From: a virus
Strand: one strand, 5' to 3'
Length of the DNA stretch: 21,531 nucleotides
IMG/VR virus record: IMGVR_UViG_3300044640_002387
Coordinates: 1 to 21,531 of that record
The translations under genes were made by a program, and so were the position numbers. Under the pieces are notes generated by a model. It did no database searches, was not told the DNA's origin, and worked only from the letters and a program-made list of their open reading frames with translations. This document shows, piece by piece, positions 4,093 to 19,429 of the stretch. The stretch's first letter is position 1; the number at the start of each line of letters is the position of its first letter.

Positions 4093-4427
4093 GCAGCAAA
4101 GAAGTGCCAGCTACTGCGAAGCGCAAGCCCCCGGCCGCCGGCATGGGCCGCAAGCCCGGGTCGGTCAACAAGACCACGAAGGCCCTGCGCGAGGCCATCC
4201 TGGAAGCTGCTGAGCGCAGCGGTCGAGACAGGCAAGGCAAGGGCGGCCTGGTGGGCTACCTGAAGCGTGTGGCCGACGAAGACACCAAGAGCTTCAGCAT
4301 GCTGCTGGGCAAGGTGCTGCCGCTGCAGGTGACCGGCGAAGGCGGCGGGCCTGTGCCGGTGGCCGCCATCCCGATGACGCTGCAGGAATACACCGACGTG
4401 GCCGCCAAGCTGGCGCGCGAGGTCTGA
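4089..4427 (+). CDS. Probable small terminase subunit / packaging-associated protein
   Basis: This 112-residue protein begins with a basic segment, PATAKRKPPAAGMGRKPGSVNKTTKAL, followed by helices (LREAILEAAERSG, GLVGYLKRVADED) and the phrase SFSMLLGKVLPLQVTGE. This pattern is typical of the small protein encoded directly upstream of large terminases in many siphophages; the basic N-terminus resembles DUF5681-type tails. A small terminase recognises the packaging site and hands DNA to the large subunit. It uses a TTG start inside the upstream stop and a TGATG junction with the large subunit gene. The assignment rests mainly on position and on the GRKPGS and LGKVLPLQV motifs. Confidence 0.6.
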   Translation: MSSKEVPATAKRKPPAAGMGRKPGSVNKTTKALREAILEAAERSGRDRQGKGGLVGYLKRVADEDTKSFSMLLGKVLPLQVTGEGGGPVPVAAIPMTLQEYTDVAAKLAREV

Positions 4428-5830
4428 TGCACAGCGACGCGGAGCTGCGCGAGCGCCTGGTGGCCGCCGAGATGGCCCGGCAGGATCTCTACTTCTTCGC
4501 GCGCTACATGTTCCAGCGCCGGCGCGGCTACACGTGGCGCCGGGCTGCGCACCATCGGGCCATCTGCGACGCGCTGATGCGGGTCTACCGCGGAGAGTGC
4601 CGCCGGCTGATCATCAACATCCCCCCGCGGTACAGCAAGACCGAGCTGGCCGTGCTGATGTTCATCGCCTGGACGATGGGCCACGCGCCCGACAGCGAGT
4701 TCATCCACACCAGCTACAGCGCCACGCTGGCGGCGAACAACAGCGCCGCGGTGCGCGACCTGATCCAGCACGAGGCCTACCGCGAGGTGTTCCCCTCTGT
4801 GCAACTGCAGGCCGAGGCGAAGAGCCACTGGACCACGACCGAGGGCGGCGTCGTGTACGCGGCAGGCGAGGGCGGCACGCTGACAGGTTTCGGCGCCGGC
4901 AAGATGCGCGAAGGCTTTGGCGGGGCCATCGTCATCGACGACCCGCACAAGGCCGACGAGGCGCGCAGCGACGTGATCCGCCAGGGCGTGCTCGACTGGT
5001 TCAGCAACACGCTGGAGAGCCGCAAGAACGACCCCGAGCGCACGCCGATCATCCTGATCATGCAGCGCCTGCACCAGAACGACCTGGCCGGCTGGCTGCT
5101 CGATGGCGGCAACGGCGAGAAGTGGGAGCACCTGTGCCTGTCGGCCGTGCAGCCTGACAGCACGCCGCTGTGGCCCGAGAAGCACAGCGCCGAGGATCTG
5201 GCGCGCATGGAGCGCGCTGCGCCGTACACCTTCGCGGGCCAGTACCGGCAGAGGCCAGCGCCGCCCGAGGGTGGCGTGTTCAAGCCCGACCGGCTGCAGG
5301 TAGTGGACGCCATCCCCGCCGGCGTTGTGCAGTGGGTGCGTGGCTGGGACTTGGCCAGCACCACTGGCGGCGCCTATACGGCCGGCGCGAAGCTCGGCAA
5401 GCTGAAGGACGGCCGGTTCATCGTGGCGCACGTGGAGCGCCAGCGCCTTGCCACCGACGAGCGCGACCAGCTGCTCAAGAACACCGCAGCCCGCGATGGC
5501 GCCGGCGTTCGCATCAGCCTGCCGCAAGACCCGGGGCAGGCCGGCAAGAGCCAGGTGCTGTACCTCACGCGCCAGCTCGCCGGCTACTCGGTGCACAGCA
5601 GCCTGGAAAGCGGCGACAAGGAAACGCGGGCCGAGCCCTTCGCCAGCCAGGTGAACGTGGGCAACGTGCTGATGTTGCGCGGATCTTGGAACGACGAGTT
5701 CACCGAAGAGCTGCGGCTGTTCCCGAACGGCGTCTACAAGGACCAGGCCGACGCAGCGGCGCGCGCCTTCAACGAGCTGCTGGGCGTCCCCGACGCGAAC
5801 CCCGCCGGCTTGAAGGTGCAGGGCCTGTGA
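4427..5830 (+). CDS. terL: Terminase large subunit
   Basis: This 467-residue packaging motor has an ATPase half with a variant Walker A, NIPPRYSKTE (residues 64-73), and a Walker B, GAIVIDDPHKAD (166-177). The segment RLHQNDLAGWL (214-224) is the conserved region near the coupling motif. The nuclease half has GWDLAS with D308, LPQDPGQAGKS with D368, and KDQADAAARAF with D442, the expected metal-binding aspartates. The enzyme cuts concatemeric DNA and pumps it through the portal into the procapsid. Length and motif order are normal, so it is probably intact. It is coupled to the small-terminase-like gene by TGATG and to the next gene by GTGA. The portal gene does not follow it, which is unusual. 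Confidence 0.92.
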   Translation: MHSDAELRERLVAAEMARQDLYFFARYMFQRRRGYTWRRAAHHRAICDALMRVYRGECRRLIINIPPRYSKTELAVLMFIAWTMGHAPDSEFIHTSYSATLAANNSAAVRDLIQHEAYREVFPSVQLQAEAKSHWTTTEGGVVYAAGEGGTLTGFGAGKMREGFGGAIVIDDPHKADEARSDVIRQGVLDWFSNTLESRKNDPERTPIILIMQRLHQNDLAGWLLDGGNGEKWEHLCLSAVQPDSTPLWPEKHSAEDLARMERAAPYTFAGQYRQRPAPPEGGVFKPDRLQVVDAIPAGVVQWVRGWDLASTTGGAYTAGAKLGKLKDGRFIVAHVERQRLATDERDQLLKNTAARDGAGVRISLPQDPGQAGKSQVLYLTRQLAGYSVHSSLESGDKETRAEPFASQVNVGNVLMLRGSWNDEFTEELRLFPNGVYKDQADAAARAFNELLGVPDANPAGLKVQGL

Positions 5831-6051
5831 ACGCCGAAGCCATCCTCGAAGCGGTGTTCATCCTGAACCCGCGCACGGGCGAACGGGCCCGGCGTCTGGC
5901 CTGCGCTGTGCAGCTGCTGCGCGCGAATGCATCAAAGCTTGAGGCCGCTCGGCAGATCCGCCTCCGCTTTGAAGTCAGCCAGCCGGTTGCGTGGCACGTC
6001 GTCAACATGGCCGCCGACATGGTGCTGATCGAGAAGGACAAGAAGCCGTGA
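5827..6051 (+). CDS. 74-aa protein between terminase and minor head genes
   Basis: A GTG start overlapping the terL stop opens a 74-residue frame, with the helical segment ERARRLACAVQLLRANASKLEAARQIRLRFEV and a basic end (IEKDKKP). The arrangement of helices could be a small HTH, but this is not convincing. It overlaps both neighbours by four bases. Its position, where many phages place a head-completion or portal-adjacent protein, gives a hint and no more. I do not recognise the family. Confidence 0.6.
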   Translation: MNAEAILEAVFILNPRTGERARRLACAVQLLRANASKLEAARQIRLRFEVSQPVAWHVVNMAADMVLIEKDKKP

Positions 6052-7142
6052 CCCCCGAACAAGAGCGCGCCCTGCTGGACGCAACCGTGGCCGGCCTCGA
6101 TGAGGCGCTGCGCGAGGCCTTCCGCGAGGTGGTCGAACTGATCCAGGCCGGCGTCGTGCCGCGCGATGCCGTGCAGGAGGTGATGGACAGCTTCCGCGGC
6201 GAGATGGCGCAGACGATGGCCACGGCGCTGTCGGGCATCCTCGGTGAGGCCGTGGGCGCGGCAGCAGTGATGGAGCTGGAGGTCGGCGCGGTGCGCCTGT
6301 CGACGAAGCTCTACGCCGAGGCCCAGAGCGTGAGCGTGGCGGTGCAGGGCGCCGTGGAGCGGCACACCCGCGGCTTTCAGGACGCGCGCCGCCTGGCGCT
6401 GGATCTGTTCGAGGGCTACAACTTCCGGCCGCCGGGTGCCGAGCCGCTGCAGATCAGCCCGCGCAACCCGAAGCTGCCGCGCTACATGCGCGAGGCGCTG
6501 CTGACCGACGACGCGGTGCTGGTGGAGATGCGGCGGGCCTTCGCCTCCATGCAGGTGAGCGACCTCAGCACGCCAGCCCTGCAGGCGGCCTACAGGCAGG
6601 TGCTGGACGCCATCGCGGCGGTGGAGGCGGGGGCAGGCACTGCGCTGCTGGAGAGGCGCATCGAGGTCGCGTTCTACGAGCGCATGCGCTACTTCGCGGC
6701 GCGGATCTCGCGCACCGAGCTGCACCGGGCCTACGCCGACCGCGAGGCGCAGCTGCTGATGGATGATCCCGACGTCGAGTTCGTGCAGGTGCGGCGGGCA
6801 CCAGGCCGCGGCGCTCCGTGCATCTGCCAGCTCTTCGCTGGCCGCGATTTGTACGGCCTAGGTCCCGGCGTGTATCCGAAGGCGGTGGCGCCTCGGCCGC
6901 CGTACCACCCGCACTGCATGTGCGTGACCTCGCCGCGGCTGGACCTGACCGGGCGGAAGGCCGAAGAGCGCGACCCGGACGGCGACGCCTACTTCCTGCG
7001 CCGGCTGGACCCTTCAGTGGCAGGGCGCGTGATGGGCAGCCTGGGCAAGGCCGATGCGGTTCTGCGCGGCACGAGCCCCGAGGCGGTGGTGAACAGCGGG
7101 CGTGATCCGCTGTACCACGTCAAGCCGTTGGCCGGAGCCTAG
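6048..7142 (+). CDS. Mu F-like minor head protein
   Basis: This 364-residue protein has the Mu F/SPP1 gp7 signature in its second half. RISRTELHRAYADREAQLLM (219-238) is followed by CICQLFAGRDLYGLGPGVY (258-276) and PPYHPHCMCVTSP (284-296), with C258, C260, H287, H289, C290 and C292. The first half is helical. Such proteins join the procapsid beside the portal and are involved in capsid morphogenesis or DNA ejection. A GTG start overlaps the upstream TGA, with AAGGA a short way upstream. In most phages this gene directly follows the portal gene; here the portal is more than 10 kb away. Its TAG stop overlaps the stop of a convergent gene. Confidence 0.85.
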   Translation: MTPEQERALLDATVAGLDEALREAFREVVELIQAGVVPRDAVQEVMDSFRGEMAQTMATALSGILGEAVGAAAVMELEVGAVRLSTKLYAEAQSVSVAVQGAVERHTRGFQDARRLALDLFEGYNFRPPGAEPLQISPRNPKLPRYMREALLTDDAVLVEMRRAFASMQVSDLSTPALQAAYRQVLDAIAAVEAGAGTALLERRIEVAFYERMRYFAARISRTELHRAYADREAQLLMDDPDVEFVQVRRAPGRGAPCICQLFAGRDLYGLGPGVYPKAVAPRPPYHPHCMCVTSPRLDLTGRKAEERDPDGDAYFLRRLDPSVAGRVMGSLGKADAVLRGTSPEAVVNSGRDPLYHVKPLAGA

Positions 7143-7456
7143 ACGGCGAAGTCGTACAGCTCGGCCGGCGTGAAGCGGCGGAAGGTCGGCGCCTGGCCGG
7201 GCTGCTGCACGGTCAGGTAGAACTGCTGGGTCTGCACGCCCCAGCCGCCCTCGATGACGCACAAGCCCTGGGCCTGCAGCTTCTCGGCCGCGCTGAGCAG
7301 CGGCGCCAGGTCGGTGGGCTTGTCGGCCGGCACAACGATGGCAGCTCGCGGCACGGGGCCGCACGCGGCGCGCACGTCCTCGCGATGTGAGGATGACAAG
7401 GCGCTGAAGCCCCACCAGGCCAGCAGCGCGCCGATGAGGTAGAGGGCGGCTTTCAT
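7139..7456 (-). CDS. Small membrane-anchored protein, unknown function
   Basis: This 105-residue protein has an N-terminal hydrophobic helix, MKAALYLIGALLAWWGFSAL. It may be an uncleaved signal anchor, since there is no clear signal peptidase site or lipobox. An exported domain of about 80 residues with C32 and C66 follows. It is the last gene of the leftward block, 33 bases after the terminator-like gene, with a distant GGGGAGG as a weak ribosome site. Its TAG shares CTAG with the stop of the Mu F gene on the other strand. Possibilities include superinfection exclusion, lysis help or a lysogenic accessory; the sequence does not choose between them. Confidence 0.6.
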   Translation of the reverse strand: MKAALYLIGALLAWWGFSALSSSHREDVRAACGPVPRAAIVVPADKPTDLAPLLSAAEKLQAQGLCVIEGGWGVQTQQFYLTVQQPGQAPTFRRFTPAELYDFAV

Positions 7457-7489
7457 GCCGGAATTCTGCGCCTCCCCGCGGGTGCGGTT

Positions 7490-7867
7490 TTAGGGGGCTG
7501 CGTTCGCGCCGATGATGTCGACCCGCAGGGCCATGATCTTGTACGCATCCAACCGGTCTTCGTCGGTGATCGTCTCGCGGTAGCGGTGGCCGCCAGCGCG
7601 CAGCACGGCCAGCAGCTTGCCCTCCAGCTCGAACAGCCCGGCATAGACCGCCGGCAGGCCCTCGCTGTTGGCGATGGGCGCCCCGAAGTAGATCAGCGTC
7701 TCGCACTCGCGGCCGTGGTACGGCCTGCCGGCGATGATGCGCGACGGCACCAGGCGCACCATCGGGTAGTCGGCCGGGCTGAGGTTGGCCTCCAGGCCGA
7801 TCTCGCAGGTGACAACGCCGTCAACGGCCGCCAGCGCATCGCGCACGGCTTGCAGGGCGGCCATCAT
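7490..7867 (-). CDS. Probable tail terminator / tail-completion protein
   Basis: This 125-residue alpha/beta protein starts with a helix, ALQAVRDALAAVDGV, followed by strands including PADYPMVRLVPSRI, CETLIYFGAPIA and the final IMALRVDII. Size and pattern resemble gpU-like tail terminators, which cap the finished tail tube and bind the head connector. ATG 7867 is chosen because it forms the same TGATG junction with the upstream stop as its neighbours; GTG 7870 and ATG 7864 are alternatives. It sits with a gp10-like gene and a helical connector-like gene, which supports the role. The assignment is structural guesswork from length, pattern and context. Confidence 0.5.
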   Translation of the reverse strand: MMAALQAVRDALAAVDGVVTCEIGLEANLSPADYPMVRLVPSRIIAGRPYHGRECETLIYFGAPIANSEGLPAVYAGLFELEGKLLAVLRAGGHRYRETITDEDRLDAYKIMALRVDIIGANAAP

Positions 7868-8205
7868 CACGCGCGCTCCAGCGGAATGCTGAAGATGCCC
7901 ACGCCGGCCGCGCCCGGCGTCTCGGCCTCAGCGGCTGCAGCGGCCAGCGCCTGGGGCAGCAGCACGTCGAACTGCTGGCGGTAGCTCTTCAGCTTCGCGG
8001 TGAACAGGTCTTCGGCGTCGGCTTGGTTCTCCAGGCAGGCCAGGATGTAGCACTGCACGATGGTGAGCCGCTGCAGCCAGTCGGCGCTGAAGGTGTAGCC
8101 GGCGGCGGTGGCGCGCAGCTGCACGTCGGCAAGCGCGCGGGCCTCGCGCTCCTCGGTGCAGTACTTCGCCAGGTAGGCGTCGGGGTAGGTGTAGGTCAAA
8201 GCCAT
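7867..8205 (-). CDS. Probable head-tail connector (adaptor-like) protein
   Basis: This 112-residue, mainly helical protein begins MALTYTYPDAYLAKYCTEEREARALAD and continues through WLQRLTIVQCYILACLENQA and LFTAKLKSYRQQFDVLLPQAL. Small all-helical proteins beside gp10-like and terminator genes are usually adaptors joining portal and tail, such as the HK97 gp6 or SPP1 gp15 types. I infer that role from composition and neighbours rather than from a motif. TGATG junctions couple it to both flanking genes. Confidence 0.5.
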   Translation of the reverse strand: MALTYTYPDAYLAKYCTEEREARALADVQLRATAAGYTFSADWLQRLTIVQCYILACLENQADAEDLFTAKLKSYRQQFDVLLPQALAAAAAEAETPGAAGVGIFSIPLERA

Positions 8206-8645
8206 CAGATGGGCTCCTTCAGTGCTTGGTCGAGGATCTTGGAGAACTCGCGCACGGCCAGCGTTGCCGCGTTGATCAGGTAGGGGTCGCCGCGGTAGCC
8301 CGGGTGATTGACCTTGCCGGCGAAGAAGAACCGGCCGCCACTGGCCCAGCGCAGGGCCTTCTTCTTGTTGGGCATGATCACGTGCGGTCGGGTGCCGAGC
8401 TGCACGAAGACCGCGTGCGGCGCGCGGCGCGGGTCATGGCCCACCTCGCGGCCTTTCGGAATGGCGCGGTTGAACAGCGACTGGAAGAGGGCGCCGGTCT
8501 TGTTGTGCCGGCCGGCGCCGCGCTGGGCCTCGTCGTAGCCCACCTGAGACATGCGCAGGATGGTCTTCTTCTCCAGCGTCTCCGGCAGGCGCCTCAGCGT
8601 GCCCGCGGCCTCGCTGAGGCCTTCGAACTTGATGAAGAGGCTCAT
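8205..8645 (-). CDS. HK97 gp10-like head-tail joining / tail completion protein
   Basis: This 146-residue protein starts MSLFIKFEGLSEAAGTLRRLPE and has the central motif FVQLGTRPHVIMPNKKKALRW. The end, HPGYRGDPYLINAATLAV, is the standard signature of HK97 gp10-like proteins. They sit at the head-tail interface or act in tail completion. The length is normal. The gene overlaps the preceding hub gene by four bases (ATGA) and the next by one (TGATG). The odd point is position: it follows the tail-tip genes, whereas it usually lies between the major capsid and tail tube genes. Confidence 0.75.
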   Translation of the reverse strand: MSLFIKFEGLSEAAGTLRRLPETLEKKTILRMSQVGYDEAQRGAGRHNKTGALFQSLFNRAIPKGREVGHDPRRAPHAVFVQLGTRPHVIMPNKKKALRWASGGRFFFAGKVNHPGYRGDPYLINAATLAVREFSKILDQALKEPI

Positions 8646-10180
8646 GTGCCGGGCTCCGCTTCGTAGGTCATCACCCAGCGCCAGTGCCCAGGGCCCGGGG
8701 TGGATGTGTCAGCGTTTGAGGTTGTGCCCACGACGGGCCGATACGGGCGCGTGCGGCCGCCGATGGTCACGTTGATCGTGGGCAATTTCCCGACCGCTGT
8801 GAGCCAGGCCTCCAGCGACGCAAAGTTGACGAGGTCCACCTGGCTGGTGGAGCTGACCAGCCCGCCGGTGACCATCGTGGCAGGCACGCAGCTCGAGTTG
8901 TAGCCAGCGCCGAGCGTCACCACCGACGAGTTGATGGTGGCGATCCGCAGATTCACCGGCGAGGCCGAGCTGGCGAAAACCCAGGTTCCCACGTCCACGG
9001 CCGGAACGGCAGAGCCGCTGAACTCGAACGCCGAGCTGTTGGCCGTGTAGATCAGCTCGCCGACGGGAGCCGACGATGTGAGCGAGGCGCCCGGCGGCGT
9101 TGTAACCAGCTCGATGCTGGCGATCTTTGCTTCGTGGGTCGCTGTGTCTGCCGTGATGGCCGCAGCGGACGAGGACAACACCTGCGTGACGCCGCAGGCA
9201 GCGTTGAACGAGGTCGAGACGATCCACGAGCGCGGAGGGTTGCTGGTCCTGCTGGCCAGGCTGAAGGCCACGGAGACACGCACCAGCGGCCATGGCGCGC
9301 AGGCCTTGGGGTTGTCCAGGAACCCGATGACGCGCGGCGACGTCCAGCTCTGCCCCACGAACTCCACCACCACCCGGTCGCCCACGTTGAACGCGCCCGC
9401 GTTGCAGGTGCTGTAGACCACCGGCACGTTGGAGAGGCTCGAAACCAGGTTCACGCCCAAGCCCTGCGCGCTGGACACCGCCGGCGCCAAGTTCACGCTG
9501 CAGCGGTCGGTGCTGTAGTTGATGGCGGTGATCGTGCCCCAGCGGTAGGTGGGCCGAAACTTCTGCACCCCCGGCAGGATGGCTGCGTTCAGGAACGCCT
9601 GGGCCGGCGACATGATCTCGCGGGCAGTGAGTTCGCCGTCGCTGGGCGTCCACTCTCTGGCGCCGGGTGCGATCAGGATCAGGTTCGACTCGCCGGGGAT
9701 GTCGACCGTCGCGACGTAGCTGCCCGCCGGGGCGTCTTCGGTCAGGTCCGCGCACCAGGCGCTGCGGGTCTCGATGGGGTTGAAGGCCTGCCAGTAGGCT
9801 GCACGGCGCACAGCTTGAGCGCGTTCGAACTGCAGGGACTGCAGCTTGAACCGCAGCGGAGCATTCGCCGCGCGCAGCTCGGTGAGCTGCCGCACCTCGA
9901 ACCGGAAGCCGGCGGTGTCGGGCTTGGATGCCCCGGGCGGCAGGCCGCCGGTCGTGGCGGAGATCAGCGCCGCCTCTGCTGCCTGCACCTTCGCGATCTG
10001 GGCCGCCTCTGCGGCATCCGCTGCGGCAACCCTGACCAGCAGGGTGGAGATGGCGACGTCGAGCTGGGCGAGGAGCGAGTTCGTCGCCGCGAGCAGTGCG
10101 TCGCGCGTGCTCTGGCCGTAGTCGAGCTCGATGGTGTACCGGCCGTCAGGCCCGCCGCTGATGATGCGCGCGTAGCCCAT
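8642..10180 (-). CDS. Tail-tip/baseplate protein with OB-fold-like domain
   Basis: This 512-residue protein begins with a short strand-rich head (GPDGRYTIELDYGQ). An alanine-rich coiled coil follows (residues about 25-75), then a mixed region to about 210. Residues 212-295 look like the OB-type domain of VgrG/gp5-like hub proteins: YRWGTITAINYSTDRCSVNL, then NVPVVYSTCNAGAFNVGDRVVVEF and PRVIGFLDNP. The rest (300-512) is beta-rich, with Ser/Thr/Gly repeats suited to an exposed tip or receptor-contact region. It probably works at the tail tip with the preceding gene, to which it is coupled by TGATG. The OB reading is from pattern, not a search. Confidence 0.65.
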   Translation of the reverse strand: MGYARIISGGPDGRYTIELDYGQSTRDALLAATNSLLAQLDVAISTLLVRVAAADAAEAAQIAKVQAAEAALISATTGGLPPGASKPDTAGFRFEVRQLTELRAANAPLRFKLQSLQFERAQAVRRAAYWQAFNPIETRSAWCADLTEDAPAGSYVATVDIPGESNLILIAPGAREWTPSDGELTAREIMSPAQAFLNAAILPGVQKFRPTYRWGTITAINYSTDRCSVNLAPAVSSAQGLGVNLVSSLSNVPVVYSTCNAGAFNVGDRVVVEFVGQSWTSPRVIGFLDNPKACAPWPLVRVSVAFSLASRTSNPPRSWIVSTSFNAACGVTQVLSSSAAAITADTATHEAKIASIELVTTPPGASLTSSAPVGELIYTANSSAFEFSGSAVPAVDVGTWVFASSASPVNLRIATINSSVVTLGAGYNSSCVPATMVTGGLVSSTSQVDLVNFASLEAWLTAVGKLPTINVTIGGRTRPYRPVVGTTSNADTSTPGPGHWRWVMTYEAEPGT

Positions 10181-11544
10181 CAGGTCGGCTCCACACGCTC
10201 GCCGACATCCATGTACTGATCGCCGTCGCTCACGTAGTAGTTGATGTAGGCCACCACGAATGGGGCCGAGTTCACGAAGGCGATCTGGCCCGGCCGCAAC
10301 AGCCAGTCGATGGCACAGCGCACGCGCAGGCCGCCTGGCGCCGTGAAGATGGTGCGCACGTCCGTGAGCGTGCGCGCTGTCAGCAGCGGCGGGCTTCCCG
10401 AGAGGACAGAGCCTGCGCTGTACCCACTGAGGGTGGCCGTGTAGTTGTTCGGGCCGCGCGCCGTGGTGACGGTCTGCAGCGGCACGGCGGCCATCTGGTA
10501 CTCGAAGGCCGTGCCGTCCAGCAGCACGCAGCGCCGAGAGACCCGCACGCGGGTGGCTGCGTTGATTTGGGCCAGGAAGGGCTCGCAGGCCGGAATGACC
10601 ACCTGCAGGTAGTTCGACTGCTCGGTCTGGAGCGTTGCCTGCCAGGAGCTGATCGGCACGCGCACGCGACCGGCCAGGGTGTCGAGGTCGACCACGTACA
10701 CCAGCGGGCGGCCCTCCACCGCGGCGCTGAAGTTGTGGAAGGCGTCCACGAGAGCGGCCCCGAGTGGGCTGGGCGCAAGGGCCCTGCCTGCGCGCGGTAT
10801 GTGCCGAGCGACCGCAGCGCCGGCGCCGAGGGGGCCCGGGCTTGCAGCCCGGCCAGTTGTGGCGCCACCGCCTCCGGACGGGGTCATCAGGATGGTGACC
10901 GCGCCCAGGTTGTTGTTGCTGCCGTAGAGGGCGGCGGGCGTGCCGCCTGTAGGCTGGAAGTTGAAGGCCCCGGAGTTCGACACGCCGTTGCCGACGATGC
11001 GGTAAGCCGCCGCCAGGTTGTATTCGGCCAGGGCCGTGCCGCTGGTCAGCGTGAAGCTGGCAGGCGGGGCCGGCGTCGCAAGGCCACTGCCGCTCGGGCC
11101 TGGGGGCCAAAGCACGGACGAGGCGAAGATCAGGATCAGCGAGTCATTGCTGGTCGCAGTCACCGTCGACGGGGTGATCGCGTAGGAGTTGACCGACCCT
11201 GAGGTCGTCGTCGAGTAGGCGACCGACGAAGCGCCGCGCGTGACCGCGCACACCACGGCCATCGCGCCTTCGCTGGCCTGCGTGAAGCTGAAGGTCTGGC
11301 TTGAATCCCCCGCAGTCACCGAATCCTTGGCGAAGACTGCAAGGCGCTGGTCGGTGCCGTACTCCGCAAAAATCGCGGTCTCTGAAACCTTCGTCCAGCC
11401 CGAGGGGCCCGAGATCGCGAAGCCCCCGTGCACGGCGGCCAGCAGCCTGTCGCCCGCCTGAATGCCCGCGGGCGTGGTCAGGTCGATGCTGGCCGTGCCG
11501 AAGGCATAGGCGAAGGTCGAGCCAGCGACGAACGTCACGGACAT
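10180..11544 (-). CDS. Two-domain tail protein: beta-sandwich head plus hub-like C-terminus
   Basis: This is a 454-residue protein. Residues 1 to about 220 form a beta-rich domain with AGDRLLAAVHGG, SGWTKVSET, QTFSFTQASEGAMAVVCAVTRG and LAAAYRIVG, the phrasing of phage carbohydrate-binding or Ig-like surface domains. A Gly/Pro/Ala linker (about 222-265) has repeated SPLGA-like units. Residues 270-454 begin RPLVYVVDLDTLAGRVRVPI and run through SSWQATLQTEQSNYLQVVIPA, which resembles tail-hub proteins of related siphophages. The combination suggests a structural hub with an attached adhesive domain. It lies between a 129-aa structural gene (4-base gap) and the OB-fold protein (TGATG). Roles are inferred. 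Confidence 0.6.
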   Translation of the reverse strand: MSVTFVAGSTFAYAFGTASIDLTTPAGIQAGDRLLAAVHGGFAISGPSGWTKVSETAIFAEYGTDQRLAVFAKDSVTAGDSSQTFSFTQASEGAMAVVCAVTRGASSVAYSTTTSGSVNSYAITPSTVTATSNDSLILIFASSVLWPPGPSGSGLATPAPPASFTLTSGTALAEYNLAAAYRIVGNGVSNSGAFNFQPTGGTPAALYGSNNNLGAVTILMTPSGGGGATTGRAASPGPLGAGAAVARHIPRAGRALAPSPLGAALVDAFHNFSAAVEGRPLVYVVDLDTLAGRVRVPISSWQATLQTEQSNYLQVVIPACEPFLAQINAATRVRVSRRCVLLDGTAFEYQMAAVPLQTVTTARGPNNYTATLSGYSAGSVLSGSPPLLTARTLTDVRTIFTAPGGLRVRCAIDWLLRPGQIAFVNSAPFVVAYINYYVSDGDQYMDVGERVEPT

Positions 11545-11548
11545 CGGT

Positions 11549-11938: not shown

Positions 11939-11949
11939 GGTGGGTCCGA

Positions 11950-12303
11950 TCAGGCTGAGAGCTTGGAGATCACCAGCAGGCGCAGCGTGCTTTCGTCATC
12001 GCCTTGCTGGTACACCTCGGGCGCGGCCAGATAGAGGCCGCTGCTGATGGCGACCTGCAGCTGCGCGTAGGTTTGCACCAGGCGCTCAATGTCGAGGTGT
12101 TCCTGCCGGCTGGTGGGCTGCCACGACAGCAGCAGCGTGCGGTCGGCGTCGGTGAAGCCGAAGTCGTTGAGCACCGCGCCGCCGTCGAGCGTGGCGATGC
12201 GGTTGACGCGGCGGCGGGTCTCGCTGGGCTCGGCCGGGCTGCTGAGCTGCAGCTCCACGAAGCCGTCAAGGTCGAAGGTGGGGGCAGAAAGGGTGCAGCG
12301 CAT
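11950..12303 (-). CDS. Minor tail protein directly after the tape measure
   Basis: This 117-residue, strand-rich protein starts MRCTLSAPTFDLDGFVELQL and contains RVNRIATLDGGAVLNDFGF and LLLSWQPTSRQEHLDIERL. It begins one base after the tape-measure stop. In lambda-type siphophages this slot holds gpM or a distal-tail protein that caps the tail tube at the tip. I infer a minor tail role from position; no diagnostic motif is visible. Confidence 0.55.
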   Translation of the reverse strand: MRCTLSAPTFDLDGFVELQLSSPAEPSETRRRVNRIATLDGGAVLNDFGFTDADRTLLLSWQPTSRQEHLDIERLVQTYAQLQVAISSGLYLAAPEVYQQGDDESTLRLLVISKLSA

Positions 12304-12304
12304 G

Positions 12305-14281
12305 TCAGGTGCCCAGCAGTAGCTTCAGGCCGTCAGCGTTCACGCGCACCTGGATGGTCCGCAGGATCTCCCACATGAACGCCTCCAGGTGCGGCTGCAG
12401 GCCGGCGCCGTCGACCTTGATCAGCGAGTCGCCGCGCTCCACGGCCTTGGTCTGCGCGCGGATCTGCGCGATCTGGGCCTCGGTCAGCTTCTTCTGCTGG
12501 TCGAGGGCGTCCTGGCGGCGCTTGTTCTCCTGCTCGATCTGCTTCTCGATCACGCGGATGGCGCCGAAGCTGAGGCTGTCGAAGTCCTTGAACAGGCCGA
12601 AGAGGTCGCCCAGAAGGTCGCCCGTGCTGTTGACGGTGTTGTCGATGCTGGCGAACGCGGCCTTCGCGCGCTCGGTGTCGGCTTCGAGCTGCGCGATGTT
12701 CAGCGAGACCTTGGCCTCGATGTTCTTGATGCGCTCGTTGCTGGCCAGCTTCTCCAGCTCCAGCTTGTATTCGGCGGTCTTCTCCGCAGCCTTCTTGGTG
12801 GCCTCGGCGTTCTTGCGCAGTTCCTCGGCCTGCTTGCGCGCAGCCTCGCTCACAGGGCCGAACGAGGGCGAGAGGTTCTTCTGCTTCGTCTCGATCAGCG
12901 CCACGGCCTGGGCGTACTGCTCGGCATTGAGCCGGCCATCTCGGAAGGCCAGCGCCGCCTGAGTCAGAAACTCCTTCAAGCTGGCATCGCGGGGCAGCTG
13001 CTGCAGCGCACCGATCAGGCCGGTGACGATCTGCTCGCCGCTGGCCTTGGAGTTGGAGGCCAGATCCTTGAAGGCGGTTTCCAGCTCCTTCACCGGGTTG
13101 ACGAACAGCTTGGGGTCGACGCCCAGCGCCTTCAGGCTCTTGTCGATCTCGGCAGAGGCCTTTTTCCAGGCCTCCGAAGACTTGTCGGCGCCCTCGGCCA
13201 CCTTCGAGCCGATCTCGGCGCCAGCAGCCGCAGCCTGGCGCGAGAGGCGCGCGGTCTCGGCGGCGGACTGATTGGAGACGCCGCTGATCTTGTCTGAGAC
13301 GAGGTTGAACTCGGTCTCGATGATGCTGAGGTCGCGCTCGAAGGCCGAGTAGTCGCGCGTCTCCAGTAGCTTGCGCACCGCTCCGAACACGTTGCCCAGG
13401 TACTGCAGGCCTGCGGACACCGACTGCACGCCTCGGCTGAGGAAGTCGAGCGCGTTGGTGATCGCGTTGAAGACCCCGGTGTCCCCGATGACGACGAACA
13501 GCTCGGTGGTGGCGTTCTTCAGCCGGTTCAGCTGCTGGGTGTAGCCGTCGAATGAGCTGCCGCCGAAGGTCTTGTTCAGCTCGGCGGCGAACTTGGGCAG
13601 GAACTCGCTGGCCTGCAGTCCGCCGCCCTCCACCAGCTTGATCAGCTCCTCGGTGGTCAGGCCCAGGCTGCGTGCCGCGATCTGCAGCGCGCCGGGCAAG
13701 CGCTCGCCGAGCTGTCCCGACAACTCTTCGAGCGAGACCCGACCCTTGCTGACGATCTGGGTGATCGCCAGGAAGGCGCCGTTCGTCTCTTCGCTGCTGC
13801 GGCCGAGTGCGGCCATGGCGCGCGAGACCGCTTCGAAGATGGTGCGGGTGGCCTCGCCCTGCAGGTTGGTGCCGTTGGTGGCTGCCGTCAGGCTGGCATA
13901 TGCGCCGGCCGTGACGCTGATCTCCAGGCCCAGCTCGTTGGAGATGCGCTTGACGTATTCGAACTCTTCCGCGGCCGCCGTGCTGCTGCCCTTGAGCAGG
14001 GTCAGCGTGCGGGTGAACTTCTCGGCCTCCACGTTGGCGTTGATGAACGCCTGCGCGACGAGAGAGGCGGCCAGCGCCTGAATGGCCGTGGTGACAGCCG
14101 TCAGGCCCGGGCCCCTCTTGCCGAGGTCGTCGAGTTCCTTGTCGAGCTGGTCGACCTTCGACGCGGCAGAGCCAGCCTCGGTGCCGACCTTGTCGAGATC
14201 GCGCGCCAGGCCGCCGGTCACGCCGCTGGCGCGATCCTCGCCCTGGAAAATGATCGAGACGGTCTTGGTGAGGTCAGCCAT
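12305..14281 (-). CDS. Tail tape measure protein
   Basis: This 658-residue protein is the longest gene here. It starts MADLTKTVSIIFQGEDRASG and has the tape-measure domain features ANVEAEKFTRTLTLLKGSS and VSKGRVSLEELSGQLGERLPGALQIAA (about residues 83-215). A hydrophobic stretch lies near 58-85 and long alanine/lysine coiled coils near 500-620 (ARKQAEELRKNAEATKKAAE, IEKQIEQENKRRQDALDQQK). It would fix tail length and exit ahead of DNA; at about 1.5 angstrom per residue this predicts a tail of roughly 100 nm. It overlaps the 46-aa gene by eight bases. No lytic domain is seen. Confidence 0.85.
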   Translation of the reverse strand: MADLTKTVSIIFQGEDRASGVTGGLARDLDKVGTEAGSAASKVDQLDKELDDLGKRGPGLTAVTTAIQALAASLVAQAFINANVEAEKFTRTLTLLKGSSTAAAEEFEYVKRISNELGLEISVTAGAYASLTAATNGTNLQGEATRTIFEAVSRAMAALGRSSEETNGAFLAITQIVSKGRVSLEELSGQLGERLPGALQIAARSLGLTTEELIKLVEGGGLQASEFLPKFAAELNKTFGGSSFDGYTQQLNRLKNATTELFVVIGDTGVFNAITNALDFLSRGVQSVSAGLQYLGNVFGAVRKLLETRDYSAFERDLSIIETEFNLVSDKISGVSNQSAAETARLSRQAAAAGAEIGSKVAEGADKSSEAWKKASAEIDKSLKALGVDPKLFVNPVKELETAFKDLASNSKASGEQIVTGLIGALQQLPRDASLKEFLTQAALAFRDGRLNAEQYAQAVALIETKQKNLSPSFGPVSEAARKQAEELRKNAEATKKAAEKTAEYKLELEKLASNERIKNIEAKVSLNIAQLEADTERAKAAFASIDNTVNSTGDLLGDLFGLFKDFDSLSFGAIRVIEKQIEQENKRRQDALDQQKKLTEAQIAQIRAQTKAVERGDSLIKVDGAGLQPHLEAFMWEILRTIQVRVNADGLKLLLGT

Positions 14282-14414: not shown

Positions 14415-14422
14415 GGTGGCGC

Positions 14423-14881
14423 TCAGGCCGGAGTCGGTAGCGAGGCGGCTGCGGGCTTTACAAGGTCGAAGCCTTGCCCGGTGAGTTCGGTGATCTTGTT
14501 CGTGAGGGACAGGAACTCAATGGGAGCGACCTCGGCGAGCTTCACCGCGTGCGGCAGCTCGATCTTCGGCGCCACGCTGCCCATCACGAGCATCTCCAGG
14601 CGCTTGGCGATCTCGCCCGGGGTGTCCTTCGTCAGGCCCAGAGCGGCGCGGACAGCCTCGGCCTGGTCGCCGCCACCAGCGATGGCGCGGACGATCTGCT
14701 CGATGCTGCCCTGCCGCTTGCCGGCCTCCAGCGCGCGGTGCAGCTCGGCGGCAGAGAGGCCTCGCACCTCCCAGACAGCCGGCTCGCCTTCGGGAAAAAA
14801 GGCGGCCAGCGCGTCCACCGACACGCTGGCCCGGCGTGGCGCGAACTGCGCCCGCTCGAACTGCTCCGCGTTGAAGCCCAT
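14423..14881 (-). CDS. Tail assembly chaperone (gpG-like)
   Basis: This 152-residue protein begins MGFNAEQFERAQFAPRRASV and includes WEVRGLSAAELHRALEAGKR and the end EFLSLTNKITELTGQGFDLVKP. This is the usual make-up of siphophage tail chaperones, which coat the tape measure while the tube assembles. ATG 14881 is preferred because it forms a TGATG junction with the tail tube stop; a further upstream methionine would run inside the tube gene. It is followed nine bases later by the 46-aa gene in the -1 frame. The role is well supported by its place between tail tube and tape measure. Confidence 0.7.
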   Translation of the reverse strand: MGFNAEQFERAQFAPRRASVSVDALAAFFPEGEPAVWEVRGLSAAELHRALEAGKRQGSIEQIVRAIAGGGDQAEAVRAALGLTKDTPGEIAKRLEMLVMGSVAPKIELPHAVKLAEVAPIEFLSLTNKITELTGQGFDLVKPAAASLPTPA

Positions 14882-15855
14882 CAGGCCACCTCGGTCGCCG
14901 CAGCGCTGGCCGAGATCGTGCACGCCGCCTGGATGCTGTCAGCAGCCGGGAAGGTGCGCGCAATGCCGAGCTTGCCCTGGCAGAGCAGGTTCGGCGTGGC
15001 GTAGCGGTCCGGGTAGAAGCGGAACCACAGCACCTCGTTCTTCAGGGCCACCAGCGGGTCGTTGACGCCGTTGTTCAGGAAGGCCGTGAAGCTGCCCTGG
15101 CCGAGCGTCGAAGAGCTGGAGCCCAGCGTGGTGCCGTAGACCTGGGTCGAGGTCACCGAGTGCGTAGTCTCGGGCGGCACGAAGTCGCTGGCCAGCGCGA
15201 TGTCGGCAAAGATCGGCGAGGCGTAGCTGGCGAACGTGCGCTTCGGCGTCGGGCCGGTGTGGATGGCCGGCAGAACGTCGAGGAAACGCACCGTGCCCGA
15301 GCCCGGCAGCACGTCGAACAGCGGGAAGTCCGCGCGCTCGCGGTGCAGGCCCACCACCTGGAAGATCTCGGTGGAAGGGATCACCGCCGCGGTGCTGGTG
15401 GCGAAGCGCACCTGGCCAATCTCGATGCTGTCCACCGGGATCAGCGGAGGGCCACCGGCCGCGCCGCGGGTCTCCACGAAGGCCGCGGTGCTGCCGTCGG
15501 TGCCAGCCACTGCTGCCAGCGCGCCCGCAGCGTTGACGGTCAGCGAGACCACCTTCGACACGTTCGACGCAGGGCGCGTGGCGGTCAGGTTACCGCCGGC
15601 CACCGTGGTGACCACGCCGTTCAGGTTGCACGTCAGCGACGCGACGGTCACCGTGTTGTTGCTGGCGTTCGGCGTGATGGCGCCGCCGGTCAGCAGGCCA
15701 TTCGGCCGCACCACAGGGGCGAAGCCGCTGCGGCTGGACCAGAGCGAGGCCGCGCTGGTGAAGGTCGTCGCGTCGCCGCTGTTGGTGAGGACGGACATGG
15801 CCACGGCGTTCTGCCCGGCCTCGTACTGGAGCTTTGCGTTCTCTGCGGTAGCCAT
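14881..15855 (-). CDS. Major tail tube protein
   Basis: This is a 324-residue beta-rich protein. The C-terminal half contains YGTTLGSSSSTLGQGSFTAF, then LNNGVNDPLVALKNEVLWFR, then GKLGIARTFPAADSIQAACT. The last phrase is the conserved turn and strand seen near the end of many siphophage tail tube proteins. The first half (residues 40-140) carries Ser/Thr/Ala-rich repeats that may form an Ig-like decoration. Subunits would stack as hexameric rings around the tape measure. It lies directly downstream of the capsid genes and upstream of the chaperone, with no connector genes between. Confidence 0.7.
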   Translation of the reverse strand: MATAENAKLQYEAGQNAVAMSVLTNSGDATTFTSAASLWSSRSGFAPVVRPNGLLTGGAITPNASNNTVTVASLTCNLNGVVTTVAGGNLTATRPASNVSKVVSLTVNAAGALAAVAGTDGSTAAFVETRGAAGGPPLIPVDSIEIGQVRFATSTAAVIPSTEIFQVVGLHRERADFPLFDVLPGSGTVRFLDVLPAIHTGPTPKRTFASYASPIFADIALASDFVPPETTHSVTSTQVYGTTLGSSSSTLGQGSFTAFLNNGVNDPLVALKNEVLWFRFYPDRYATPNLLCQGKLGIARTFPAADSIQAACTISASAAATEVA

Positions 15856-15859
15856 GGTG

Positions 15860-16033: not shown

Positions 16034-16036
16034 GGA

Positions 16037-17188
16037 TCAGCCCAGCAGCAGCGCTGCGTGCTCCGGCTTGATCATCGCGGGGCCCCAGGCCGCCGAGATC
16101 TCCCACTGCATCTGGCGGTACTGCGGGTACATCGCCACTTCGAACGACATGCCCGAGCGCGGGTCGGTGATGACCGTGCGATCGATGGCGCTGTCACCGG
16201 CTTCCGGCAGCGAGGGCAGGCGCGCGGCCAGCACGATGGCCGAACGAGCGAAAGCCATGCTGCGTGCGCTGCTGGCAGCGCGGGTGATCGCCGTGGCCGA
16301 CGCCGGGATGGCGCGGCGCAGGCCGGGCGCAGCCAGCACGATGGTGCCGCCGCCAGAGACATCGGCGTCGCCGGAGACCAGCACGTACTGGTTGGTGTCG
16401 CCCGCGAAGGTCACCACGTCGCCGGCCAGGAAGGTGCCGGTGCCGGCCGAGGCCAGCGTGATGGTCGTGGCGCCGACCGCATAGCCCGCGTTGTTGGTCG
16501 TCGAGCTGGCGGCCGTGCCGGCGGTGTGCGTGCGGACCTGGCCCGACTCGCGGATCATCAGACCCGAGTGGTCGAGCAGCACGCCTTGACGCAGCAGGCT
16601 CAAGTCGCCCTGGATGTCCTGGCGCGACTGCACGCCGCGGATGTTGGCGCCGGCGGCGGTGTCGAGCACCAGTTGCAGGTCGCTCAGCGGCGCGCCGTTG
16701 TCGCTCAGGATGCGGCGGACGTTGGCCGCGTCCATGAAGTTGCCAGCGGTGCCGAAGGGCGTGGTGCCCGCGGTGCCGGTGGCGCGGCTGGCCAGCACAT
16801 GCAGCGCGGCGAGGTCGGCTTCCATCTCGTTGACCAGCGTGCGGATGGCCTGCGCCACTTGGTTGGCGCGCACGTTGGCGACGCCGACGCCGCTGGCGGC
16901 TTGGCGCTCCTGCTCGCCGGTCCAGCGGATCGGCACGCGGCGGGCCTTGGTGATGGTGATCGGCACGTTGCCGATGGTCTGGTTGCCGTCATCGGGCGGC
17001 GTGACGCCGGGGGTGATGTCGGTGGCGGCGGCGGCCGGGGCGACCGGGCTGCGCACTTGCTGGCCCACGGCAGCGCGAGCGGCCTGCGGGTCGAGGGTGA
17101 CGGAGGGGATGAAGCCGACGAGTTCGCGCGAGACGACATCGAGGCCAGCATAGAGGTCGGGGATCAGGCCGGTGAGGGTCGTGGACAT
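16037..17188 (-). CDS. Major capsid protein (P22 coat-like)
   Basis: This is a 383-residue protein. It opens MSTTLTGLIPDLYAGLDVVS followed by RELVGFIPSV, a phrase characteristic of P22 coat-type capsid proteins. RRVPIRWTGEQERQA follows, then a helical run with VAQAIRTLVNEMEADLAALH. An inserted beta domain contains VGATTITLASAGTGTFLAGD and VVTFAGDTNQYVLVSG. The end, MYPQYRQMQWEISAAWGPAM, is also typical. It forms the capsid shell on the scaffold encoded just upstream. AAGGA at 17197-17201 with an eight-base spacer is the best ribosome site in the leftward block, consistent with the most abundant product. Confidence 0.82.
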   Translation of the reverse strand: MSTTLTGLIPDLYAGLDVVSRELVGFIPSVTLDPQAARAAVGQQVRSPVAPAAAATDITPGVTPPDDGNQTIGNVPITITKARRVPIRWTGEQERQAASGVGVANVRANQVAQAIRTLVNEMEADLAALHVLASRATGTAGTTPFGTAGNFMDAANVRRILSDNGAPLSDLQLVLDTAAGANIRGVQSRQDIQGDLSLLRQGVLLDHSGLMIRESGQVRTHTAGTAASSTTNNAGYAVGATTITLASAGTGTFLAGDVVTFAGDTNQYVLVSGDADVSGGGTIVLAAPGLRRAIPASATAITRAASSARSMAFARSAIVLAARLPSLPEAGDSAIDRTVITDPRSGMSFEVAMYPQYRQMQWEISAAWGPAMIKPEHAALLLG

Positions 17189-17211
17189 GATGGTGTTCCT
17201 TCAGGAGGTGG

Positions 17212-17886
17212 TCAGGTGAGTTGCACGCCGGCCTTGGCCTGCTCCACGCGCTGGGCGGGAGGAAGGGCCTCGAACTCGGCTCGGGTCATGGTCTTGCCAG
17301 CGCCGCCGCTTCCCGCGTTGGACTGACGCACCCCCGCACCTCCCGTGCCGGTGGGCTTGAGCAGCTCGGGGCGCGTCTTGGCGATCCCGGCCACTCCGTC
17401 CTTCACGGGAATGAGCTTCCCGTCGTCGGACTTGAACAACAGCTCGTCGCCTTCCCACGTCAGCCGCTGGCTGACGAAGGTTTCGACGATGTCGCGGGCG
17501 ATGAACTCATGCCCGCCCAGCGCTTCCGCGATGGCTGCTTTCTGAAGGGAGCCGCGGAACTTGCCCGAGGCTTCGTCGGCCAGCTTCTTCGCGTCGTCGC
17601 GTTCCCGCTCCGCGCGCTTCAGCTTGGCGGACAACTGCGCGGCTTCCTCGACAGCGGCTTTCGGATTGGGGCGGCTTTTCAGCTCGTCCAGTCCAGCAAC
17701 GCCGGCCGTCTCATATGCCTCGGCAAGTTCAGCTTTCAGGTCGGTGATCTGTTGATCCTTGCCCTTCCTGCCGTTGATCGACTCGTTGCGTGCTGCGTCG
17801 CGCTGCCCGATGAGGTCGTTCACGTAGCCCTGCAGCGAGGCGAACGTCTCGTCGCCCAGCTTGTCCTTCAGTTTCGCAATGTCCAT
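17212..17886 (-). CDS. Capsid scaffolding protein
   Basis: This 224-residue, charged, helical protein starts MDIAKLKDKLGDETFASLQG and then YVNDLIGQRDAARNESINGRK. A coiled coil follows over about residues 45-115 (AAQLSAKLKRAERERDDAKK). A globular C-terminal part has GHEFIARDIVETFVSQRLTW, then a Gly-rich tail and TRAEFEALPPAQRVEQAK. This is a common scaffold form, where the coiled coil dimerises and the C-terminus touches the coat protein. It is the first gene of the leftward block, 23 bases before the capsid gene. GAGG with a five-base spacer precedes its ATG. No protease gene is adjacent. Confidence 0.75.
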   Translation of the reverse strand: MDIAKLKDKLGDETFASLQGYVNDLIGQRDAARNESINGRKGKDQQITDLKAELAEAYETAGVAGLDELKSRPNPKAAVEEAAQLSAKLKRAERERDDAKKLADEASGKFRGSLQKAAIAEALGGHEFIARDIVETFVSQRLTWEGDELLFKSDDGKLIPVKDGVAGIAKTRPELLKPTGTGGAGVRQSNAGSGGAGKTMTRAEFEALPPAQRVEQAKAGVQLT

Positions 17887-17934
17887 GCGGCCTCACGCCT
17901 TGGTTGTTGACGGCGCGGAAGGTAGGCCTGCATC
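17887..17934. promoter_or_regulatory. Divergent intergenic region between scaffold and portal genes
   Basis: These 48 bases separate the leftward scaffold start from the rightward portal start and must hold, or lie downstream of, any promoter for each block. TTGACG at 17907-17912 on the plus strand could be a -35, but the bases 17-18 further on (GCATCC/CATCCA) are a poor -10. No convincing leftward promoter is visible. The region also contains GGAAGGTAGG, the likely portal ribosome site. Confidence 0.35.
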
Positions 17935-17951
17935 CATGCCGAAACGGCATG
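17935..17951. promoter_or_regulatory. Perfect inverted repeat over the portal start codon
   Basis: CATGCCG-AAA-CGGCATG is a perfect seven-base-pair dyad with a three-base loop. The ATG of the portal gene (17936-17938) lies in the left arm. As RNA it would form a GC-rich hairpin hiding the start codon. As DNA it would make a compact operator between the divergent scaffold and portal genes. Either role is inference. Confidence 0.5.
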
Positions 17952-19429
17952 AATGGGCGCAGAGACTGCGGCCTGCCAAACCAGCGCACCGCCCCATGCC
18001 CAACGCCAGCGCCCCGCGCTTCAAGTTCATCGCGCACGCGCTGCGCGGGGATGGGCCTTTCCGTCCCGTGGTGTCGGACTACGGCGACAACAACGTCCAG
18101 CTCTCCGGGCTGAGCTACCTCGTGCGCTACCCGCGCGAGAGCGACATCAAGTTCGCGCGCCGCAACGAGATCGCATTCTATGCCTCGCCGCTGGCGATGG
18201 CCTGCAGCCGCTTCGCCGGTTACCTTTCGATGAAGGCCGCCTCGCGCGAGCTGCCGAACGGGCAGTTCACCCGCATCGCCGAGGACGTGGACGGCAAGGG
18301 CAACACGGTCGACGTGTTCTTCTCGCAGTTCATCGTCCAGGCCAAGGCCCGCGGCTCGATGCTGCTGCTGGTGGACATGCCGGCCACGATGCCCGCAAGC
18401 CAGGCCCAGCAGATCGGCCAGCGCCTGCTGCCGTATTGGTCAGCCATCGAGCCCGAGAGCCTGACCGAGTTCGCCATCGGCGACGACGGCAAGTTCGATT
18501 TCGTGGAGTTCGCTGGCAACTTCACGAAGGCAGACGGCAGCCGGGTGGATTGCACCTGGCACTTCGACCGCGAGAAGTGGTCGGCTGTCAGCAAGGAGAA
18601 GGTGCCGCTGGCCGGAGCCGACCACCCGCTCGGCGAGTGCCCGGTGCTGATCTTCACCGAGGGCGGCGACTTCCCGCACTTCGGGCCGTTCGCGGCCATC
18701 GCGGACCTCAGCAAGCGCCTGTTCAACGCCGAGAGCGAGCTGGACGAGATCCTGCGCGCGCAGACCTTCAGCCTGCTGACCATGCAGGTGCCGGAGGACA
18801 GCACCTCCGAGCAGAAGCTTGCCGCCGCGCAGACCGCCGGCCAGTCCATCGGCACCAGCAACCTGATGGTGCACAGCGGCAGTACGCCCGCCTTCATCGC
18901 GCCGCCTGATGGTCCGGCCCGGGTCTACCTGGACCGCATCCAGAAGCTGGAAAGCAAGATCGACGAGGTCGGCCTGAACGTGGCCACCGTCAATGCCCAG
19001 GAGAGCGGCATCGCCATGCAGATGCGCTTCCAGGCGATCAACGGCGAGCTGTCGCGCTTCGCTCTGCGCATGCAAGACCTGGAGAGCCGGGCCTGGGACA
19101 TGTCGCGCCGCTGGCTGGGCATGCAGCAGGGCCCCTCGGTGCAGTGGCCGCGCGACTTCAACCTGGCGGACGTCGAGACCGAGTTGAAGATCCTGGCCGA
19201 CATGCAGGCCGCCGGGATGCCGCCGGAGGTCATCGCCGAGCAGCAGCGCCGCATCGTGACGCTGCAGTTCCCGGCGATGGATGAAGCCGCCCGCGCCGAG
19301 CTGCTGCAGGCCATCACCGAGCGCACGATGGAGCCGCAGCCCAGCGGTGAGAACGTGGTTCCGCTGCGGCCCGACCCGAACGCCGAGCTGCGCGCCGCTG
19401 CCGTGAGGGCGCTGAGCAATGGCGCGTGA
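17936..19429 (+). CDS. Portal-like protein (DUF4055 type)
   Basis: This is a 497-residue protein. YLVRYPRESDIKFARRNEIA, then FYASPLAMACSRFAGYLSM, matches the layout of DUF4055-type portals, where a loop precedes the helix that enters the wing. PYWSAIEPESLTEF (about residues 163-176) and the HFDREKWSAV strand pair follow. The later helical stem and crown include LDRIQKLESKIDEVGLNVAT, then FQAINGELSRFALRMQDLES. A dodecamer would form the DNA channel. ATG 17936 is chosen for GGTAGG nine bases upstream; ATG 17996 is an alternative without a ribosome site. The stop lies inside the collagen-like gene. Its distance from the terminase gene is unusual. Confidence 0.68.
   Translation: MPKRHEWAQRLRPAKPAHRPMPNASAPRFKFIAHALRGDGPFRPVVSDYGDNNVQLSGLSYLVRYPRESDIKFARRNEIAFYASPLAMACSRFAGYLSMKAASRELPNGQFTRIAEDVDGKGNTVDVFFSQFIVQAKARGSMLLLVDMPATMPASQAQQIGQRLLPYWSAIEPESLTEFAIGDDGKFDFVEFAGNFTKADGSRVDCTWHFDREKWSAVSKEKVPLAGADHPLGECPVLIFTEGGDFPHFGPFAAIADLSKRLFNAESELDEILRAQTFSLLTMQVPEDSTSEQKLAAAQTAGQSIGTSNLMVHSGSTPAFIAPPDGPARVYLDRIQKLESKIDEVGLNVATVNAQESGIAMQMRFQAINGELSRFALRMQDLESRAWDMSRRWLGMQQGPSVQWPRDFNLADVETELKILADMQAAGMPPEVIAEQQRRIVTLQFPAMDEAARAELLQAITERTMEPQPSGENVVPLRPDPNAELRAAAVRALSNGA

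What the first reader, a model, noticed from the sequence alone, without database searches (positions are those of the whole stretch)
4427..19429. Portal gene separated from terminase and Mu F genes by an inverted capsid/tail block
Most siphophages run terminase, portal, Mu F protein, scaffold, capsid and then tail on one strand. Here terL and the Mu F gene are on the plus strand at 4427-7142. The whole scaffold-to-tail block is on the minus strand, and the portal-like gene is on the plus strand at 17936. Simply flipping the block back does not put the portal beside terL, so either more than one rearrangement occurred or this is a stable, different architecture.
Basis: partly seen in the sequence, partly recalled or inferred. 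Interest (0 to 1): 0.6.

Follow-up and report, generated by a model that had tools for sequence, protein, structure and literature searches.

The report
Phage with divergent portal and capsid operons
The odd gene order is real and inherited, not an assembly error: this phage belongs to a widespread family in which the portal gene points away from the scaffold and capsid genes, and the window's own branch has in addition flipped the whole portal-capsid-tail region.

Summary
TerL (4427-5830) and the MuF-type gene (6048-7142) lie on plus, a neck/tail/capsid/scaffold block (7139-17886) on minus, and the portal (17996-19429) on plus.

It is not a misassembly: contigs from three other metagenome assemblies match at 99.98-100% across every junction.

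In 73 of 73 distinct relatives with this portal type, portal and scaffold/capsid lie on opposite strands; in 49 phages with distant portals they share a strand. Relatives include bacterial-genome contigs and isolated phages NrS-1 to NrS-3.

The family's usual order is TerL> MuF> | <connectors <portal | scaffold> capsid> tail>. The window and seven other contigs differ from it by one inversion of [portal + scaffold-to-tail]. The left breakpoint is at 8642-8645, between the neck gene and the last tail gene; the right one lies beyond the window. So the 7.14 kb and 17.9 kb points are not inversion junctions, and the connector genes did not move.

The ~110-bp portal|scaffold gap holds a variable palindrome more often than chance (17/52 versus 2/104 in controls). 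I infer divergent late promoters sharing one operator, like P2's pP/pO. A helix-turn-helix gene between TerL and MuF is a candidate regulator, untested.

The parts
4143..4427 (+). probable small terminase subunit (TerS), by position only
   Evidence: ORF directly upstream of and overlapping TerL; phrog_11043, unknown function, 4.5e-23
4427..5830 (+). large terminase subunit TerL
   Evidence: phrog_38 5e-102; Pfam Terminase_6C 1e-8
5827..6051 (+). m0, small helix-turn-helix-like protein (74 aa); candidate late regulator
   Evidence: conserved between TerL and MuF in relatives; weak HTH Pfam matches in family members, none in the window copy; four-helix model, pLDDT 89
6048..7142 (+). MuF-type head morphogenesis protein
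   Evidence: phrog_1657 8e-18; start
7139..7456 (-). small gene at the end of the minus block, present in G005 and G012
7490..7867 (-). connector gene, possible tail terminator (role by position)
   Evidence: stays next to MuF in both arrangements
7867..8205 (-). connector gene, possible head-tail adaptor (role by position)
   Evidence: stays next to MuF in both arrangements
8205..8645 (-). neck / tail completion protein (Neck1)
   Evidence: phrog_5 1e-10
8642..8645 (.). left breakpoint of the inversion: neck gene | last tail gene, a 4-base gene overlap
   Evidence: gene-order comparison with G006, G008, G009, G011
8642..10180 (-). distal tail-operon gene; last gene of the inverted segment on this side
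10180..11544 (-). tail-operon gene, function unknown
11549..11896 (-). virion structural protein
   Evidence: phrog_3758 5e-7
11950..12303 (-). tail-operon gene, function unknown, conserved in family
12305..14281 (-). tape measure protein
   Evidence: Pfam TMP_3 1e-28
14423..14881 (-). possible tail assembly chaperone (by position)
   Evidence: conserved before the tape measure gene
14881..15855 (-). probable major tail protein (by position)
   Evidence: phrog_30644, unknown function, 3e-108
16037..17188 (-). major capsid protein, P22-coat type
   Evidence: phrog_283 4e-91; Pfam P22_CoatProtein 8e-6
17212..17886 (-). scaffold protein
   Evidence: phrog_206 3e-9
17887..17995 (.). divergent intergenic gap between scaffold and portal, inferred bidirectional late promoter region
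   Evidence: 109 bp here, 90-125 bp in most full contigs compared
17931..17955 (.). palindrome CATCCATGCCGAAACGGCATGAATG, inferred shared operator; perfect core at 17935-17951
   Evidence: p about 0.01-0.02 against shuffles for this copy, strong excess across the family
17996..19429 (+). portal protein
   Evidence: phrog_145 2.5e-46; fold match to portals
19419..19973 (+). collagen-like protein, second gene of the portal operon
   Evidence: tail-fibre PHROG matches; same place in G003 and G011

Best explanation
The window is a real fragment of a tailed phage (probable siphophage) whose late genes form two divergent operons: the portal operon outward on one side, the scaffold-capsid-tail operon outward on the other, with a short gap between them. 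This divergence is an old, stable trait of the whole portal family (shown). In the usual order the portal operon ends with the neck/connector genes and runs head-on into the TerL-MuF module. In the window's branch, an inversion of the segment [portal operon without its connector genes + scaffold-to-tail operon] put the connector genes at the end of the tail operon and turned the portal to the same strand as TerL, 10.9 kb from MuF (shown by gene-order comparison; the direction, usual to inverted, is inferred from the inverted order being confined to shallow branches). Because the segment turns around a bidirectional start point, both operons keep their promoter, so the flip need not disturb expression (inferred). 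A palindrome in the gap is probably the shared operator of a phage regulator (inferred, weaker).
For: 73 of 73 distinct near-portal contigs have portal and scaffold/capsid on opposite strands, against 49 same-strand among distant portals. Same plan in NrS-1, the circular record MW202423 and contigs of bacterial genomes, including the isolate Aquariibacter albus. Inverted order in eight distinct contigs: window, G001-G005, G012, L178. Usual order in the close relative G010/G011 plus L004 (TerL 75%, MuF 65%, portal 66% identical; overlap 2,364 b at 99.9%) and in G006 and G007, which have terminal repeats. Junctions reproduced in three other assemblies. Palindrome excess 17/52 gaps versus 2/104 coding controls.
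Against: Block genes (portal, scaffold, capsid, tail) reject a single clade of inverted-order phages (AU p=6e-12), so it is not one simple event followed by clonal descent; flank genes do not reject it (p=0.13). The right breakpoint is outside the window. No promoter-like consensus was found in the gap and nothing tests transcription. Not all gaps have a clear palindrome; for example G011 has none.
Confidence: 0.8

Rival explanations
1. Assembly artefact: the minus block was joined in the wrong orientation.
For: The window is a linear metagenome contig without end repeats, and raw reads were not available.
Against: Three contigs from other assemblies match at 99.98-100% and span every junction; seven further distinct contigs have the same order at lower identity.
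Confidence: 0.01
2. Several unrelated rearrangements or module swaps, rather than one inversion in place: the TerL-MuF-connector module and the portal/capsid/tail module are exchanged between phages and rejoined in either orientation.
For: Block and flank genes give different trees and the block rejects one clade. TerL is clearly swapped between close relatives: 44% between the window and G005, against 77-81% in other genes. Other placements of TerL/MuF exist: L257, L261, L250, L251.
Against: The collagen-like gene and the one after it stay next to the portal in both orders (G003 versus G011/L004), as an inversion in place predicts; flank genes do not reject a single origin.
Confidence: 0.25
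3. A switchable (phase-variable) invertible segment that flips within one phage population.
For: Both orientations exist in the family.
Against: All near-identical contigs of this phage have one orientation and all three of G010/G011/L004 have the other; the inverted-repeat search found nothing distinctive in the window or G003. The right end could not be examined for this phage.
Confidence: 0.03

Closest known systems
Nitratiruptor phages NrS-1, NrS-2, NrS-3 (AB746912, LC545443, LC545444)
   Same: Homologous portal (36%), recorded as '44 kDa structural protein' in NrS-1; portal on the opposite strand from scaffold and capsid in NrS-1; portal convergent with MuF and TerL
   Different: Connector genes lie between portal and scaffold; no inversion of the tail block relative to TerL; unrelated TerL
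Siphoviridae sp. ctgwJ031 (MW202423, circular)
   Same: TerL and MuF on plus, tail-to-scaffold block on minus, portal on plus: the same overall layout at 36% portal identity
   Different: MuF precedes TerL; the connector genes follow the portal instead of ending the tail operon
Phage P2 late region (NC_001895, Peduoviridae)
   Same: Portal-containing operon divergent from the scaffold-capsid operon, with one annotated activator site serving both promoters
   Different: In P2 TerL (P) is first in the portal operon; here TerL is separate with MuF. Activator and operator of the window phage are not known
Acinetobacter phage vB_AbaS_qsb1 (PV107591) and other canonical-order siphophages
   Same: Capsid protein 61% identical
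   Different: One-strand order TerS TerL portal, head morphogenesis, scaffold, capsid; distant portal

Membership tests
Canonical siphophage late cassette | TerL, portal, MuF, scaffold, capsid, tail on one strand in that order | tested here: not met
   portal and capsid on opposite strands, TerL and portal apart
NrS-1-type divergent-portal family (defined here) | portal homologous to the NrS-1 44-kDa protein | tested here: met
   36% identity, E=1e-78
NrS-1-type divergent-portal family (defined here) | portal on the opposite strand from scaffold and capsid | tested here: met
NrS-1-type divergent-portal family (defined here) | connector genes on the portal side, convergent with MuF (usual order) | tested here: not met
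   in the window they end the tail operon; this is the inverted sub-type
P2-type (Peduoviridae) late region | portal operon divergent from scaffold-capsid operon | tested here: met
P2-type (Peduoviridae) late region | TerL in the portal operon | tested here: not met
   TerL is 12 kb from the portal
P2-type (Peduoviridae) late region | single activator site between the two promoters | tested here: inconclusive
   a palindrome is present; binding is not testable here

The most novel reading that the evidence does not exclude
A family of tailed phages controls its late morphogenesis genes from one central bidirectional promoter whose palindromic operator co-evolves with a small phage HTH protein (m0) encoded between TerL and MuF. 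Because both operons are wired to that hub, whole arms can be flipped or swapped without loss of coordinate expression, which would explain why this family breaks the usual gene order. Support: a palindrome at p<=0.05 in 7 of 11 m0-carrying and 1 of 20 m0-lacking phages (Fisher p=0.0009, not corrected for relatedness).
Probability: 0.25. Interest if true: 0.65.

Novelty: new variant of a known kind. Interest (0 to 1): 0.5.

Why it matters
Morphogenetic gene order is described as strikingly conserved in temperate phages, with very few exceptions (PMC3558961). This family is a widespread exception, found in phages and in contigs of MAGs assigned to several bacterial phyla, that keeps the portal divergent from the capsid genes while TerL, MuF and connector genes change place. 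It allows a direct test of whether gene order in phage heads is kept by co-assembly, by co-transcription or by history. In practice, annotation that expects the portal next to TerL can miss it: the NrS-1 and MW202423 records call it a '44 kDa structural protein'.

Tried and rejected
Misassembly: rejected by contigs from three other assemblies. Sigma-70-type promoters: none found from 3800 to the window's right end; the terminator scan was at chance level. Inverted repeats at the inversion ends: nothing distinctive in the window or in G003, with the right end outside the window. Fixed-position palindrome test: a peak 55 bases from the scaffold start (z=4.7, but about equal to the largest of 200 shuffles); re-anchored on the ribosome-site motif it was not significant (46 of 500 shuffles as high), perhaps because the spacing shifts by a few bases. 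The per-gap test with coding controls was used instead; this choice was made after seeing the weaker tests. Further copies of the palindrome: no more near-matches in the window than chance. One origin of the inverted order: not rejected by flank genes (p=0.13), rejected by block genes. m0 by fold search: no significant match; several of the weak best ones are DNA-binding domains. Papers describing this divergence in siphophages: none found in the held library with the searches made.

Full report
WHAT WAS CHECKED. The window is one whole IMG/VR record, a 21.5-kb linear fragment. The portal call was tested separately: an AlphaFold model of modest confidence (pLDDT 63) has only portal and portal-complex/connector structures among its 50 best PDB hits. 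A codon-usage gene caller refined the starts: m0 5827-6051, MuF 6048-7142, portal 17996-19429.

NOT A MISASSEMBLY. Contigs from three other metagenome assemblies match the window at 99.98-100% and together span every junction: L174 (3781-8800), L015 (8379-17170), L002 (15139-21531). Raw reads were not available.

THE DIVERGENCE IS A FAMILY TRAIT. Relatives were fetched with portal, capsid, TerL and MuF queries from viral contigs and with a portal profile from bacterial genomes, and gene orders were read with iterated profile HMMs. Among distinct contigs with a near portal (at least 430 bits) that also carry scaffold or capsid, 73 of 73 have these on the opposite strand from the portal. Among lower-scoring portals 49 are on the same strand; the four exceptions are L008, L039, L260 and L267, which carry partial or split copies of the near-family portal. 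The near family includes contigs of MAGs assigned to Burkholderiales, Methylococcaceae, Campylobacterota and others, a chromosome locus of the isolate Aquariibacter albus, NrS-1 to NrS-3, and the circular record MW202423. MAG assignments of small contigs can be wrong. Capsid genes occur in both architectures: L018 has a 76%-identical capsid protein but a 28% portal in the one-strand order. Some near-family contigs lack the capsid region; two of them (L250, L251) have the portal on the same strand as TerL and near it, so separation from TerL is not universal.

THE WINDOW'S OWN STEP. The commonest order, read from the terminase side, is TerL> MuF> | <tail-terminator-like <adaptor-like <neck ... 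<portal | scaffold> capsid> tail>. The window and seven other distinct contigs (G001-G005, G012, L178) instead have MuF> | <tail-terminator-like <adaptor-like <neck <tail ..., and where the contig reaches far enough ... <capsid <scaffold | portal>. One inversion of [portal ... last tail gene] converts one into the other. The left breakpoint is the boundary between the neck gene and the last tail gene, window 8642-8645. That boundary is tight: a 4-base overlap in the window, G003 and G012 with the tail gene, and also in G006, G009, G010 and G011 with the different gene that precedes the neck gene there; it is looser in G001, G002 and G004. The right breakpoint lies past the window. The strongest comparison is G010/G011 with L004, which overlaps G011 at 99.9% over 2,364 bases: TerL 75%, MuF 65%, portal 66% identical to the window, the same collagen-like gene after the portal, but the usual order. 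G006 and G007 have terminal repeats that indicate complete genomes, and also have the usual order.

HISTORY. In the tree of MuF and connector genes the inverted-order phages plus G011 form one clade (100/99) inside usual-order phages, and a single origin is not rejected (p=0.13). In the tree of portal, scaffold, capsid and tail genes a single clade is rejected (p=6e-12). In the portal tree all inverted-order rows lie within one shallow part of the tree. So the inverted order is probably derived, but block exchange, recurrence or reversal also took place. TerL is exchanged freely: 44% identity between the window and G005, its nearest relative in other genes (77-81%), and no detectable TerL similarity by blastp to G003, G006-G009 and NrS-1.

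HOW IT PROBABLY WORKS. The scaffold|portal gap is 90-125 bp in all full contigs compared where no ORF lies between the two genes, from this phage to MW202423; a branch with an extra ORF there has about 380-440 bp. The gap contains palindromes more often than dinucleotide shuffles predict: 17 of 52 non-redundant gaps at p<=0.05, against 2 of 104 neighbouring coding segments, with many centres about 55 bases from the scaffold start. Their sequences differ between phages while the symmetry remains: CATGCCGAAACGGCATG here, AGTTATGCGCAATCTGCATAACT in G005, TCTTTTCACGGCGTGAAAAGA in L017. That is what an operator co-evolving with a dimeric phage regulator would look like. Position-fixed versions of the test were weaker. 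A candidate regulator is m0, a 74-aa helix-turn-helix-like protein between TerL and MuF; a palindrome at p<=0.05 is found in 7 of 11 phages with m0 and 1 of 20 without (p=0.0009, not corrected for relatedness). NrS-1 also has a small protein with a possible helix-turn-helix at that place (judged by eye). Shown: gene order, its conservation, the palindrome excess. Inferred: promoters, operator function, the role of m0.

COMPARISON. The logic resembles phage P2, whose portal-terminase operon diverges from the scaffold-capsid operon with one annotated activator site between pP and pO. The window does not meet the P2 plan because TerL is not in the portal operon. No paper in the held library was found that describes the divergence for siphophages; the passages read in one Nitratiruptor phage paper do not remark on it (PMC9723563), but its whole text was not read. 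I rate this a new variant of a known kind: real and widespread, already visible in deposited records, with a testable regulatory reading.

Noticed in passing
window 4427-5830: TerL is exchanged in this family: only 44% identical between the window and its nearest relative G005 (77-81% in other genes), while 78 of 80 TerL-search loci carry no MuF of this family and none carries a near portal.
   Followed up: partly
L018 (whole); window 16037-17188: A 76%-identical capsid protein sits in a one-strand, canonical-order contig with a 28% portal, so capsid genes occur in both architectures.
   Followed up: partly
L251:405-3498 and L250:949-5934: Near-family portals directly after a terminase-like gene (L251) or after terminase-like and MuF genes (L250) on one strand, with no capsid genes on the contig.
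   Followed up: partly
L257:713-6236, L261:4396-9086: A further order: scaffold< | portal> neck> adaptor> terminator-like> TerL> (MuF>), with TerL downstream of the portal operon on the same strand.
   Followed up: partly
L035:8064-9197 (G007): The portal gene of this otherwise complete-looking contig is split into two frames; real frameshift or sequencing error not resolved.
   Followed up: no
window 17887-17900: A motif GCSTCNCGS (on the plus strand) just upstream of the scaffold start occurs in 35 of 58 distinct gaps; probably the ribosome-binding site of the scaffold gene.
   Followed up: partly
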